This document shows positions 21,917 through 25,252 of a stretch of 64,000 nt of DNA, piece by piece. Below the pieces are notes generated by a model that had not been told where the DNA came from, searched no databases, and saw only the letters and a program-made list of their open reading frames with translations. The DNA comes from Actinomyces johnsonii (lineage in GTDB: Bacteria; Actinomycetota; Actinomycetes; Actinomycetales; Actinomycetaceae). Location of the stretch: assembly GCF_006546835.1 (NCBI RefSeq), contig NZ_VICB01000013.1, positions 124,001 through 188,000 on the forward strand. Reading direction: 5' to 3'. The translations under genes and the position numbers were made by a program. Numbering within the stretch: position 1 is the stretch's first letter; each line of letters begins with the position of its first letter.

Positions 21917-24031
21917 ATGACCACTGAGGTCACAACATCTGCCACCACGGTGAGCGGCAATGACGCCTGGGAGGGCTTCGTTACCGGACCGTGGACCGAG
22001 GACATTGACGTCCGCGACTTCATCCAGCGCAACTACACCCCCTACGACGGTGACGCCTCGTTCCTCGCCGGCGCCACGGACAAGACCCTGCGCCTGTGGG
22101 ACACCCTGGAGAAGGACTACCTCTCCGAGGAGCGCAAGGTCCGTATCCTCGACGTCGACACCCACACTCCTGCCGACATCGACGCATTCCCCGCCGGCTA
22201 CATCAGCGAGGACGACGACGTCATCGTTGGCCTGCAGACGGATTCCCCGCTGCGTCGCGCCATGATGCCTAACGGCGGCTGGCGCATGGTGGAGACCGCC
22301 ATCAAGGAGGCGGGCAAGGAGGTCGACCCCGAGGTCAAGAAGATCTTCACCCGCTACCGCAAGACCCATAACGACGCGGTCTTCGACATCTACACCCCGC
22401 GCATCCGTGCGGCGCGCTCGAGCCACATCATCACCGGCCTGCCCGACGCCTACGGCCGCGGCCGCATCATCGGCGACTATCGCCGTGTGGCACTCTACGG
22501 CGTCGACTTCCTCATCGAGGAGAAGCAGAAGGCCAAGGACTCCGTGGCCGACAAGCCCTTCTCCGAGCACTGGGCCCGCTACCGCGAGGAGCACTCCGAG
22601 CAGATCAAGGCGCTCAAGAAGCTCAAGATCATGGCCGCCTCCTACGGCTACGACATCTCCGGCCCGGCCAAGAACGCCCATGAGGCCGTCCAGTGGACCT
22701 ACTTCGCCTACCTGGCCTCCGTGAAGTCCCAGGACGGCGCCGCCATGAGCATCGGCCGTCTCTCGGGCTTCCTGGACATCTACTTCGAGCGGGACCTGCG
22801 CAATGGCGTCATCGACGAGTCCCGCGCCCAGGAGCTCATCGACAACATCGTCATGAAGCTGCGCATCACGCGCTTCCTGCGCACCATCGACTACGACCAG
22901 ATCTTCTCCGGCGACCCCTACTGGGCCACCTGGTCCGACGCCGGCTTCGGTGAGGACGGTCGAGCCCTGGTCACCAAGACCTCCTTCCGCCTGCTGCAGA
23001 CCCTGCGCAACCTCGGCCCCGCCCCGGAGCCCAACATCACGATCTTCTGGGACGAGAACCTGCCGCAGGGCTACAAGGACTTCTGCGCCCTGATCTCGAT
23101 CACGACCTCGTCCATCCAGTACGAGGCCGATGAGCAGATCCGTGACCACTGGGGCGACGACGCCGCGATCGCCTGCTGCGTGTCCCCGATGCGGGTGGGC
23201 AAGCAGATGCAGTTCTTCGGCGCCCGTGTCAACTCCGCCAAGGCCCTGCTCTACGCCATCAACGGCGGTCGCGATGAGATGACCGGTAAACAGGTCGTCA
23301 CCGGCCTGCCCGGTATCGAGGGCGATGGGCCCCTCGACTTCGACGAGGTGTGGGACAAGTACGAGAAGATGCTGGACTGGGTGGTGGCGACCTACGTCGA
23401 GGCCCTCAACATCATCCACTACTGCCATGACCGCTACGCCTACGAGTCCATCGAGATGGCGCTGCACGACTCCGAGATCGTGCGCACCATGGGCTGCGGC
23501 ATCGCCGGCCTGTCGATCGTGGCCGACTCCCTGGCCGCCATCAAGTACGCCAAGGTCACCCCGGTGCGCGACGAAACCGGCCTGGTGATCGACTACGTCA
23601 CCGAGGGCGACTTCCCGATCTACGGCAACGACGACGACCGCGCCGACGACATCGCCGCCACAGTGGTCCACACGATCATGTCGAAGATCAAGGCCCAGCC
23701 CTTCTACCGCGACGCCATCCCGACCCAGTCGGTGCTGACCATCACCTCCAACGTCGTCTACGGCAAGGCCACCGGCTCCTTCCCCTCGGGCCATCAGAAG
23801 GGCACCCCCTTCTCGCCCGGCGCCAACCCGGAGAACGGGATGGACACCCACGGCATGGTCGCCTCGATGCTCAGTGTCGGCAAGCTCGACTACAACGACG
23901 CCCTCGACGGGATCTCACTGACCAACACGATCACCCCGCAGGGGCTGGGCCGCACGCTCGATGAGCGCGTCGCCAACCTCGTGGGCATTCTCGATGCCGG
24001 TTTCGTCCCCGACGACTGCGCCGAGATCTGA
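21917..24031 (+). CDS. pflB: pyruvate formate-lyase catalytic subunit lacking the glycyl-radical domain
   Basis: Converts pyruvate and CoA to acetyl-CoA and formate without oxygen. The 704 residues align by eye with E. coli PFL (759 residues) from the N-terminus to about residue 700. The catalytic cysteine pair is C420-C421 in IACCVSPMRVGKQ, and the C-terminal region includes NVVYGKATG and GMVASMLSVGKL. The chain then ends at PDDCAEI, just before the segment that in E. coli carries RVSGYAV, so no radical glycine is present. That segment is supplied by the next gene, 76 nt downstream. The ATG at 21917 follows GAGGAGG. Two DosR-like boxes lie upstream. Confidence 0.93.
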   Translation: MTTEVTTSATTVSGNDAWEGFVTGPWTEDIDVRDFIQRNYTPYDGDASFLAGATDKTLRLWDTLEKDYLSEERKVRILDVDTHTPADIDAFPAGYISEDDDVIVGLQTDSPLRRAMMPNGGWRMVETAIKEAGKEVDPEVKKIFTRYRKTHNDAVFDIYTPRIRAARSSHIITGLPDAYGRGRIIGDYRRVALYGVDFLIEEKQKAKDSVADKPFSEHWARYREEHSEQIKALKKLKIMAASYGYDISGPAKNAHEAVQWTYFAYLASVKSQDGAAMSIGRLSGFLDIYFERDLRNGVIDESRAQELIDNIVMKLRITRFLRTIDYDQIFSGDPYWATWSDAGFGEDGRALVTKTSFRLLQTLRNLGPAPEPNITIFWDENLPQGYKDFCALISITTSSIQYEADEQIRDHWGDDAAIACCVSPMRVGKQMQFFGARVNSAKALLYAINGGRDEMTGKQVVTGLPGIEGDGPLDFDEVWDKYEKMLDWVVATYVEALNIIHYCHDRYAYESIEMALHDSEIVRTMGCGIAGLSIVADSLAAIKYAKVTPVRDETGLVIDYVTEGDFPIYGNDDDRADDIAATVVHTIMSKIKAQPFYRDAIPTQSVLTITSNVVYGKATGSFPSGHQKGTPFSPGANPENGMDTHGMVASMLSVGKLDYNDALDGISLTNTITPQGLGRTLDERVANLVGILDAGFVPDDCAEI

Positions 24032-24107
24032 ACCAGTCGTCTCCACGGCTGATCTCCGCGGCAATTTTTCTTCACTCATCCGCAACACCACTTAGAAAGG
24101 GGCCACC

Positions 24108-24353
24108 ATGGCCACATACGAAGAGCGCCTCGCCTCCATGAAGGCGCAGCGTCAGGACAACGGCGGCGTCAAGGGCCTGTACCACGCCAACATCAATGTC
24201 CTGGACCGCAACACCCTCGAGGACGCGATGGAGCACCCGGAGAACTACCCGAACCTCACGGTCCGCGTCTCCGGCTACGCCGTCAACTTCGTCAAGCTGA
24301 CGCGCGAGCAGCAGCTCGACGTGCTCCACCGCACCTTCCACGCCCAGGCCTGA
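24108..24353 (+). CDS. stand-alone glycyl-radical subunit of pyruvate formate-lyase (GrcA-like)
   Basis: This 81-residue protein corresponds to the missing C-terminus of PFL. From about residue 19 onward it follows the E. coli PFL tail: [20 protein letters not shown], then RVSGYAV at 53-59 with radical glycine G56, then [18 protein letters not shown]. Residues 1-18 have no counterpart at the split point. It has its own ribosome binding site (AGAAAGG) and ATG, so it is a separate gene and not a frameshift product. It resembles GrcA/YfiD, which in E. coli rescues oxygen-cleaved PFL, but here it appears to be the only source of the radical domain. pflA follows 23 nt downstream. Confidence 0.9.
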
Positions 24354-24376
24354 GCCCTGGAGCACGGCGAGCGGTC

Positions 24377-25252
24377 ATGACGCAGACCACGACGACCGTG
24401 CGCGACGGCGGTCGGGACCAGGACTTCCTGGCTCCGGCCGCCCGTTTGCGCGGGGCGGGTATCGGCGGGCTCGAAGAGCTGACAGATCTTCAGCGCTCGG
24501 AGCGGCTGGCCCGGATGCGAGCCGGCGAACTGGGCTCGATCCACTCCTGGGAGCTCGTCACCGCAGTGGATGGTCCCGGCACCCGGATGACGATCTTCCT
24601 CAACGGATGCCCCCTGCGGTGCCTGTACTGCCACAACCCCGACACCTTCCTCATGAAGGACGGAGAGCCGGTCGAGGCCACGGAGCTTCTCCGACGCATG
24701 CGCCGTTATCGGGGAGTATTCCGCGCGTCCAAGGGCGGAATCACGCTGTCGGGGGGCGAGGTGCTCATGCAACCCGCCTTCGCGGGCAGGCTTCTGGCCG
24801 GCGCCAAGAAGATGGGCATCCATACCTGCATCGACACCTCCGGGTTCCTGGGGGCCAATGCCAGCGATGAGATGCTCGACAACATCGACCTCGTTCTGCT
24901 CGACGTCAAGAGCGGCGATGAGGAGACCTATAAGAAGGTGACGGGACGCTCCTTGGCGCCGACGATCACTTTCGGCGGCCGCCTGGCGGCCAAAGGGATC
25001 GAGATCTGGGCCCGGTTCGTCCTGGTTCCGGACCTTACGGATGACCCCGAGAACGTCCACAACGTGGCCCGCATTATCGAGCGCTGGGGCTCGGTCAGCC
25101 GTGTTGAGGTGCTGCCCTTCCACCAGATGGGCACCGACAAGTGGGACGCCCTGGGATTGACGTACCAACTGCGTGACACCAGACCTCCGGAGCCCGAACT
25201 CGTGGAGTCCACGCGCGCGATTTTCCGTTCCTACGGTTTCGAGGTTCACTGA
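24377..25252 (+). CDS. pflA: pyruvate formate-lyase activating enzyme
   Basis: Radical-SAM activase that abstracts hydrogen from the PFL glycine. The cluster cysteines are C78, C82 and C85 in NGCPLRCLYCHNP (CX3CX2C). Also seen are GGITLSGGEVLMQP, which contacts SAM, and VLLDVKSGDEETYKKVTG, typical of PflA. The length is 291 residues, with an N-terminal extension of about 50 residues relative to E. coli PflA (246). It is the third gene of the pflB - radical subunit - pflA operon. Its substrate here would be the separate 81-residue subunit, probably docked on PflB. Confidence 0.95.
   Translation: MTQTTTTVRDGGRDQDFLAPAARLRGAGIGGLEELTDLQRSERLARMRAGELGSIHSWELVTAVDGPGTRMTIFLNGCPLRCLYCHNPDTFLMKDGEPVEATELLRRMRRYRGVFRASKGGITLSGGEVLMQPAFAGRLLAGAKKMGIHTCIDTSGFLGANASDEMLDNIDLVLLDVKSGDEETYKKVTGRSLAPTITFGGRLAAKGIEIWARFVLVPDLTDDPENVHNVARIIERWGSVSRVEVLPFHQMGTDKWDALGLTYQLRDTRPPEPELVESTRAIFRSYGFEVH

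What the first reader, a model, noticed from the sequence alone, without database searches (positions are those of the whole stretch)
21917..25252. Naturally split pyruvate formate-lyase
Seen: the catalytic gene (704 residues, C420-C421) stops just before the region that holds the radical glycine in ordinary PFL. An 81-residue gene 76 nt downstream supplies exactly that region (RVSGYAV, G56) with its own ribosome binding site and about 18 extra N-terminal residues. The activase follows. Known: in E. coli a similar small protein (GrcA/YfiD) only repairs oxygen-damaged PFL. Inference: here the radical is always carried on a replaceable subunit, so oxygen damage could be repaired by swapping an 81-residue protein and not a 700-residue enzyme.
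Basis: partly seen in the sequence, partly recalled or inferred. Interest (0 to 1): 0.75.

Follow-up and report, generated by a model that had tools for sequence, protein, structure and literature searches.

The report
Two-piece pyruvate formate-lyase in Actinomyces
Actinomyces and related bacteria appear to build a central fermentation enzyme from two separate proteins, so that the oxygen-sensitive radical would sit on a small detachable piece; the split is real, widely conserved, and arose separately in another bacterial phylum.

Summary
A 704-residue pyruvate formate-lyase (PFL; C420-C421) stops near E. coli position 693-695; an 81-residue protein with its own ribosome-binding site supplies the rest (G56 = E. 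coli G734), and the activase follows. All 49 genus genomes searched carry the small protein. In the family, 156 of 213 genomes fall by E-value in the stand-alone class, 33 in the full-length class. I read 57 split loci, among them Trueperella, Schaalia, Rothia, Corynebacterium and Propionibacterium. No other canonical PFL or radical-glycine domain was found in this genome, and 0 of 61 catalytic frames carry the motif, so the small protein should be an obligate radical subunit. Database records call its relatives "GrcA2", a spare part. It resembles the C-terminus of sister single-chain PFLs (81-84%) more than E. coli GrcA (65%): gene fission, plus a new conserved N-terminal stretch predicted helical. 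Bacillota have a second split ("GrcA3") at another place; a common clade is rejected (p 2e-5). A PFL chain of that type is in the PDB (38la). Swapping the small subunit after oxygen damage remains untested.

The parts
21917..24031 (+). pfl catalytic subunit, 704 aa, without the radical-glycine region
   Evidence: TIGR01255 998 bits (cut-off 994) over profile 1-681/744, PF02901 662 bits; only canonical PFL found in the genome
23174..23179 (+). catalytic cysteines C420-C421 (= E. coli C418-C419)
   Evidence: sequence; alignment to 1h16; CCVSPM in 54 of 54 split catalytic chains left after dropping 7 partial or duplicate frames
24002..24028 (+). C-terminal tail of the catalytic chain (residues 696-704), absent from the nearest single-chain relatives, variable in length (5-15 residues after D[AS]G, 55 loci) and sequence
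24032..24107 (+). 76-nt spacer; length and frame vary between species (-4 to 129 nt; 15/19/22 of 56 in the three frames)
24094..24102 (+). Shine-Dalgarno sequence AGAAAGGGG of the small gene
   Evidence: purine-rich runs before the start in the split loci printed (seen by eye, not scored)
24108..24353 (+). small radical subunit, 81 aa (NCBI family name GrcA2)
   Evidence: NF008341 166.3 bits (cut-off 145), PF01228 profile 65-106, TIGR01255 profile 680-742
24108..24173 (+). added N-terminal extension with conserved stretch predicted helical (4-17; R7 and M11 in 57 of 57)
   Evidence: dN/dS 0.049 in 11 Actinomyces loci
24273..24275 (+). codon of G56, the radical glycine (= E. coli G734)
   Evidence: RVSGYAV in 57 of 57 small proteins; alignment to 1h16
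24377..25252 (+). PFL-activating enzyme (radical SAM), 291 aa with about 54 residues before the PFLA match
   Evidence: TIGR02493 298.7 bits (cut-off 231.75), residues 55-285; directly downstream of the small gene in 54 of 56 split loci with room to see it

Best explanation
This is an obligate two-subunit pyruvate formate-lyase. The large subunit holds pyruvate, CoA and the two catalytic cysteines. The small subunit docks into it and completes the barrel with the strand, glycine loop and C-terminal helix that single-chain PFLs carry at their own end. The activase from the same operon takes a hydrogen from G56 of the docked small subunit. The radical then passes to the cysteine pair C420/C421 of the large subunit, as in ordinary PFL. 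The pair arose by fission of a single-chain actinobacterial PFL of the Bifidobacterium/Sanguibacter type at the loop just before the radical domain. The small piece then gained a new N-terminal helix that probably guides docking or activation. Shown by sequence: split, complementarity, absence of the glycine motif in cis, conservation, gene order, relationship to own-clade PFL. Inferred: complex formation, radical placement, role of the helix. Not shown: exchange of the small subunit after oxygen damage.
For: Exact complementarity on one PFL model. No other PF01228 domain found in the own genome. 49 of 49 genus genomes; 156 of 213 family genomes in the stand-alone class by E-value. 57 split loci with RVSGYAV intact in 57; 0 of 61 catalytic frames (7 of them partial, broken or duplicate) contain RVSGYA; 54 of 54 of the rest keep CCVSPM. 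Activase directly downstream in 54 of 56. Added stretch under purifying selection, dN/dS 0.049 (11 Actinomyces loci) and 0.198 (57 loci) over 13 codons. The model of the small protein matches the YfiD NMR structure, 1.1 A over 45 columns, E 1e-3. In E. coli an engineered PFL cut after 695 plus a separate truncated YfiD is active, kcat 204 per s (PMC8683613 section 5 read), so this division of labour works chemically. Formate, at low concentrations, was detected in cultures of oral species including A. naeslundii and taken by the authors as confirming the PFL pathway (passages of PMC6493303); a named A. naeslundii record has the split genes at 99-100% identity.
Against: No biochemical evidence for this pair. 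In E. coli the same cut point assembles poorly: tPFL plus full YfiD gave 32-fold less radical than cPFL plus YfiD, and YfiD binding to tPFL was not detectable. The natural pair must therefore have solved assembly differently. The prediction of the catalytic chain is poor (mean pLDDT 59.6), and no model of the complex could be made. In 2 of 56 loci no activase was found downstream.
Confidence: 0.92

Rival explanations
1. Replaceable radical cartridge: the split is kept because an oxygen-cleaved small subunit is exchanged for a fresh one, sparing the 700-residue enzyme. This is an addition to the best explanation, not an alternative to it.
For: E. coli GrcA does this in trans for damaged PFL (passages). 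Independent fissions in two phyla gave detachable radical pieces of similar size, about 80 aa. Many carriers meet oxygen on mucosa, skin or teeth (general knowledge, not tested).
Against: Untested. After cleavage at G56 the fragment 1-55 would have to leave. No genome of the family shows a second match to the small protein at E <= 1e-10 (one match in each of the 189), so no extra spare copy. Many relatives keep a single chain.
Confidence: 0.4
2. The fission is neutral or serves assembly or regulation only: the two pieces are needed together but are not exchanged.
For: The cut lies just before the radical domain, at a short loop. The added stretch is conserved, as expected of a docking device. 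Single-chain sister PFLs do without the split.
Against: Conservation over many families, and a second independent occurrence, suggest some benefit.
Confidence: 0.45
3. Ordinary spare part: the small protein is a GrcA-like rescue factor (the database name) beside a normal PFL.
For: NF008341 GrcA2 match above cut-off; names given to relatives in NCBI records.
Against: No full PFL to rescue was found: the large chain has no glycine motif and the genome no other PF01228 domain. The small core is 81-84% identical to single-chain sister PFLs but 65% to E. coli GrcA. Grouping the small proteins with GrcA is disfavoured (p-AU 0.04, 57 columns).
Confidence: 0.04
4. Sequencing or assembly error, pseudogene, or a frameshift/read-through that yields one chain.
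For: None beyond the adjacency of the two frames.
Against: 57 loci; spacer -4 to 129 nt in all three frames, 15/19/22 of 56; a Shine-Dalgarno sequence; dN/dS well below 1.
Confidence: 0.01

Closest known systems
E. coli pyruvate formate-lyase PflB (PDB 1h16, 2pfl)
   Same: Same catalytic chain (58% identity over residues 17-696), same cysteine pair, same glycine loop, same kind of activase
   Different: One chain in E. coli; here cut at the equivalent of residues 693-696 with a new tail and a new N-terminal stretch
GrcA/YfiD spare part (PDB 6owr)
   Same: Stand-alone glycyl-radical domain of the same fold (1.1 A over 45 columns); the radical reaches PFL from a second protein
   Different: GrcA rescues a damaged full-length PFL; here no full-length PFL was found and the small protein is the only radical carrier. 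Sequence similarity is confined to residues 20-78, and the core is closer to actinobacterial PFL than to GrcA
Bacillota split PFL with GrcA3-type small protein (G1064; compare the Amygdalobacter catalytic chain, PDB 38la)
   Same: Catalytic chain without the radical glycine plus a small radical protein encoded downstream; activase on the same strand downstream in 10 of 12 loci read, within 450 nt in 9
   Different: Cut about 15-19 profile positions earlier (TIGR01255 662-666 against 681), so the NLVGxLDG segment rides on the small protein; independent origin. The partner of the Amygdalobacter chain was not seen
Engineered tPFL:truncYfiD (PMC8683613)
   Same: Practically the same cut (after 695) and the same division of parts
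   Different: Man-made, poorly activated; the natural pair has an added conserved stretch on the small chain and lacks the recognition element 696-733 on the large one

Membership tests
Pyruvate formate-lyase (TIGR01255 equivalog) | Whole-model match above the curated cut-off | tested here: met
   998.2 bits against 994.2, by the catalytic chain alone although it ends at 681/744
Pyruvate formate-lyase (TIGR01255 equivalog) | Adjacent cysteine pair | tested here: met
   C420-C421, invariant in alignment A2 of 39 split chains and CCVSPM in 54 of 54
Pyruvate formate-lyase (TIGR01255 equivalog) | Radical glycine in the C-terminal domain of the same chain | tested here: not met
   Absent from the chain; supplied by a second gene. 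It would be a PFL of two chains, not a single-chain PFL
Pyruvate formate-lyase (TIGR01255 equivalog) | Pyruvate + CoA to formate + acetyl-CoA | not testable with these tools
   Only indirect: formate in cultures of oral bacteria including A. naeslundii (passages)
GrcA2 (NF008341) | Match above curated cut-off | tested here: met
   166.3 bits against 145
GrcA spare part (TIGR04365, functional sense) | Rescues a PFL that has its own glycyl-radical domain | tested here: not met
   No such PFL found in the genome; score 84.4 against cut-off 170
Bacillota split PFL / GrcA3 (NF038360) | Match above cut-off and the same cut point | tested here: not met
   98.3 bits against 158; cut at a different place; common clade rejected

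The most novel reading that the evidence does not exclude
PFL has been cut into a catalytic chassis and an exchangeable radical cartridge at least twice in evolution, at two different points. The proteins now annotated GrcA2 and GrcA3 as spare parts are these obligate cartridges, and their renewal lets the bearers keep PFL running through oxygen exposure.
Probability: 0.4. Interest if true: 0.78.

Novelty: new variant of a known kind. Interest (0 to 1): 0.62.

Why it matters
The glycyl radical makes PFL one of the enzymes most easily destroyed by oxygen, and how facultative bacteria live with that is an old question. Naturally split PFLs separate radical carriage from catalysis, so that assembly, activation and replacement of the radical piece can be studied and engineered with native partners. 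They also suggest that the database name 'autonomous glycyl radical cofactor' hides two sets of obligate enzyme subunits, so that these organisms may be misread as having a truncated PFL plus a repair factor.

Tried and rejected
Sequencing error, pseudogene, read-through: rejected. Hidden full-length PFL: none found in the own genome. Origin from GrcA: disfavoured, although 57 columns are few. Re-fusion in the Sanguibacter/Cellulomonas group: left open. In the 121-row tree starred branches force two changes of state, but one clade of all split chains is not rejected in the 68- and 70-row sets (p-AU 0.487 and 0.519). The junction in that group, as printed, has the length of the Bifidobacterium one, which favours an ancestral single chain. 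An idea that an acidic tail pairs with a basic N-terminal stretch was dropped because some tails printed (L065, L066, L070) are basic.

Structure prediction of the catalytic chain was poor, so no geometry is claimed. A model of the two-chain complex was not possible with the tool.

Prior description: the phrase 'split pyruvate formate-lyase' is in 0 papers of the library and 'GrcA2' in 0. The listings (0 papers) show no title or abstract start on a naturally split PFL; of the listed papers I looked into four only (PMC8683613: passages and section 5; PMC12338860, PMC4177395, PMC6493303: passages). The library lacks most subscription journals and preprints. The passage of PMC4177395 says only that no PFL was found in Varibaculum cambriense.

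Rows dropped before counts: L132 and L133 (frame-broken), L148, L158, L161 (catalytic frame incomplete; small protein used), L101, L162, L164 (the same places as L129, L086, L088), L100 (other enzyme family), partial loci L102-L108 (left out of the trees, kept in the core-identity counts). Further near-duplicates were left out of the tree, and 51 of its 121 rows out of the set. The 156/33 division was read by me from the E-value table (a gap between 1e-34 and 9e-29); the table of places was cut at E 7e-37, so some of the 156 were not seen with coordinates.
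Full report
WHAT IS THERE. Three genes on the + strand lie in one operon-like row. The first (21917-24031, 704 aa) is a pyruvate formate-lyase: TIGR01255 998.2 bits (cut-off 994.2), PF02901 661.9 bits. It carries the cysteine pair C420-C421 but ends where the radical-glycine part should begin. The second (24108-24353, 81 aa) has its own Shine-Dalgarno sequence and starts 76 nt further. It carries that part, with RVSGYAV and G56. The third (24377-25252) is the PFL activase (TIGR02493, 298.7 bits). 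On the single PFL model the large chain covers positions 1-681 and the small chain 680-742 of 744. By alignment with the E. coli structure sequence, large residue 696 = E. coli 693 and small residue 18 = 696, so G56 = G734 and C420/C421 = C418/C419.

NOT AN ERROR, AND NOTHING ELSE FOUND IN THE GENOME DOES THE JOB. The genome (3.35 Mb, 42 contigs, rated 100% complete) has two PF02901 hits. One is this gene. The other is a 199-residue frame at C18:161-760 belonging to the other glycyl-radical enzyme family (TIGR01774, profile 68-262 of 786). The domain PF01228 is found only at this locus, in two pieces: positions 1-65 at the end of the large chain and 64-106 in the small chain. All 49 genus genomes searched have the small protein at 78-100% identity. 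Eight of them also have a weak second match (43-46%), six in frames of 884-958 residues and two in frames of 314 and 125; the one of these eight read (L100) lies in another glycyl-radical enzyme, 26% identical to the window's PFL.

SPREAD. In the family, 189 of 213 genomes match at E <= 1e-10. The best E-values fall into two classes: 156 genomes at 1e-34 or better, aligned from residue 1-3 wherever the place is shown, and 33 at 6.6e-23 to 9.0e-29. The two of those 33 read at sequence level (L092, L093) are single-chain. Of 394 genomes drawn from the class, 45 match. Three align from residue 1-3 in short frames of their own (the window's genome, G678, G081). The others lie in frames of 467-1012 residues, except G346 (58 residues, aligned from residue 25, not examined). 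Of 297 genomes drawn from the order, 134 have PF01228. Of 31 genomes that I picked from these, 26 gave the small protein from residue 2-3, and all 26 were read as split at the locus. A scan of named genomes kept the best 80 loci of 585 or more. Twenty-three are split: Actinomyces naeslundii, oris and gaoshouyii, A. urinae, Trueperella, Schaalia, Rothia, Corynebacterium (xerosis, tuberculostearicum, phocae, wankanglinii, pollutisoli and others), Brachybacterium, Dermabacter, Propionibacterium acidifaciens and a Cellulomonadaceae MAG; in three (L148, L158, L161) the catalytic frame is incomplete. Fifty-seven are single-chain, among them Bifidobacterium, Gardnerella, Sanguibacter, Cellulomonas, Streptomyces and Demequina. 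That list is no census.

ANATOMY OF THE SPLIT. In 57 small proteins (57 distinct loci, 54 distinct sequences) RVSGYAV is intact in 57. RVSGYA is in 0 of 61 large frames (7 of these partial, broken or duplicate), and CCVSPM in 54 of the 54 others. The spacer runs from -4 to 129 nt (median 55, n = 56) and falls in all three frames (15, 19, 22), which excludes a conserved read-through or frameshift product. The activase follows directly in 54 of 56 loci with room to see it; L073 and L151 lack it. Against the nearest single-chain relatives two pieces are new: a tail of 5-15 variable residues on the large chain (55 loci), and an N-terminal stretch on the small chain. That stretch is predicted helical (residues 4-17; mean pLDDT of the model 69.6, about 53-65 in this part). 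It has R7 and M11 in 57 of 57, Y/F4 in 57, R/K15 in 57 and E6 in 54 of 57. Over 13 of its codons dN/dS is 0.049 among 11 Actinomyces loci (core 0.077) and 0.198 among 57 loci (core 0.116; dS there near saturation). It is therefore a selected part, not left-over sequence.

ORIGIN. The core of the window's small protein (57 residues) is on average 87.8% identical to other split small proteins (56), 83.5% to the C-terminus of the sister single-chain group (10; Sanguibacter, Cellulomonas citrea, Micropruina and others), 81.0% to Bifidobacteriaceae (21), 78.7% to the other single-chain PFLs (64, mostly actinobacterial), 61.4% to E. coli PflB and 64.9% to E. coli GrcA. The HAN signature occurs in 56 of 57, 10 of 10 and 21 of 21 of the first three groups, and in 0 of 64 other PFLs and 0 of 6 GrcA. 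Forcing the small proteins together with GrcA costs 61 log units (p-AU 0.040, only 57 columns); the clade of split, sister and Bifidobacteriaceae domains itself has support 76 only. The catalytic trees put all sampled split chains, the sister group and Bifidobacteriaceae in one clade of support 100. One clade of split chains alone is not rejected (p-AU 0.487 with 68 rows; 0.519 with 70 rows). Against this, the 121-row tree places the single-chain sister group among seven split rows with a branch of support 97, which would mean one fission and one re-fusion. The shared added stretch argues for one fission in either case (inference).

A SECOND, INDEPENDENT SPLIT. Two PDB chains, 38la (687 aa) and 38lb (739 aa), are PFLs in which the radical-glycine part is not detected. 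They are absent from the rows shown of a Foldseek search in a copy up to 2026-04-08, so they are probably later. The aligned 38la sequence is 99% identical to a natural 666-residue PFL of Amygdalobacter nucleatus; Breznakia, Traorella and Erysipelotrichaceae have PFLs of 667-670 residues. Of 398 genomes of the phylum of Intestinibacter (Bacillota), 120 have a relative at E <= 1e-150. All listed places lie in frames of 740 or more except G1064 (688) and two partial ones (550, 578). In G1064 an 81-residue protein of the GrcA3 family (160.8 bits, cut-off 158) starts 243 nt downstream and an activase follows. In the order of G1064, 113 of 146 genomes match this small protein; 19 matches in 18 genomes lie in stand-alone frames of 82-101 residues, and most others shown lie in frames above 740 (my count of a cut table). 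Twelve of these loci were read: none of the 12 upstream PFL frames has SGYA, and an activase lies on the same strand downstream in 10, within 450 nt in 9. Here the cut falls earlier (TIGR01255 large to 662/666, small 665-744), so the NLVGxLDG segment belongs to the small protein. In the tree of 52 rows the actinobacterial and Bacillota split chains lie apart; holding them together costs 605 log units (p-AU 2e-5). The seven Bacillota split rows did not form one clade there: G1064 sits with three proteins of 784-821 residues that also lack SGYA and were not examined, so the history inside Bacillota is open. The partner of the Amygdalobacter chain was not seen.

HOW IT MOST LIKELY WORKS. The large chain alone lacks a strand and the glycine loop of the PFL barrel (from the E. 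coli topology given in PMC8683613, passages). The small chain supplies them, is activated at G56 in the complex, and passes the radical to the cysteine pair. The chemistry is known to tolerate this: an E. coli PFL cut after 695 with a truncated separate YfiD turned over at 204 per s, and with full YfiD at 121 per s (section 5 read). That work also found that activation of the cut enzyme with YfiD was 32-fold lower and that binding to it was not detectable; PFL residues 696-733 act as a recognition element (passages). The natural pair has no such element on the large chain. The conserved stretch on the small chain is the best candidate for its replacement (inference). Formate, at low concentrations, in cultures of three oral species including A. 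naeslundii was read by its authors as confirming the PFL route (passages of PMC6493303).

WHAT REMAINS OPEN. Complex formation, the radical on G56 and the role of the added stretch are unmeasured. NCBI has given the small family a name, GrcA2. No paper on it showed in the searches named under Tried and rejected. At least one group has solved a Bacillota-type chain. I therefore rate the finding a new variant of a known kind, of good but not extreme interest.

Noticed in passing
L232/L272 (G1064:C12) and L260-L271: Second, independent split PFL in Bacillota with a GrcA3-type small protein and a different cut point.
   Followed up: yes
PDB 38la, 38lb: Two PFL chains in which the radical-glycine part is not detected; 38la matches Amygdalobacter nucleatus. 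The organism of 38lb, the titles and the release dates were not seen.
   Followed up: partly
L002 161-760 (own genome C18): 199-residue frame of a PFL2/glycerol-dehydratase-family enzyme, short of the whole enzyme, near a contig start; a frame on the other strand (924-1589) looks like a transposase (by eye, not searched).
   Followed up: partly
window 24377-24540: The activase has about 54 residues before its PFLA match; not explained, the true start may lie further in.
   Followed up: no
P0174 and P0225: GrcA-like proteins listed from Vibrio phages (KIT04, PVA23).
   Followed up: no
L132 (G180), L133 (G270), L148, L161: PFL frames interrupted in draft genomes; set aside from the catalytic counts.
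   Followed up: no
P0264, P0265, P0302: Proteins of 784-821 residues near the Bacillota split PFLs that lack the SGYA motif; their extra part was not examined.
   Followed up: no
genera g9 and g218: Single genera hold both E-value classes (split and single-chain PFL), which suggests exchange of the locus between lineages.
   Followed up: no
G1347: One Bacillota genome has two stand-alone GrcA3-type small genes on different contigs.
   Followed up: no
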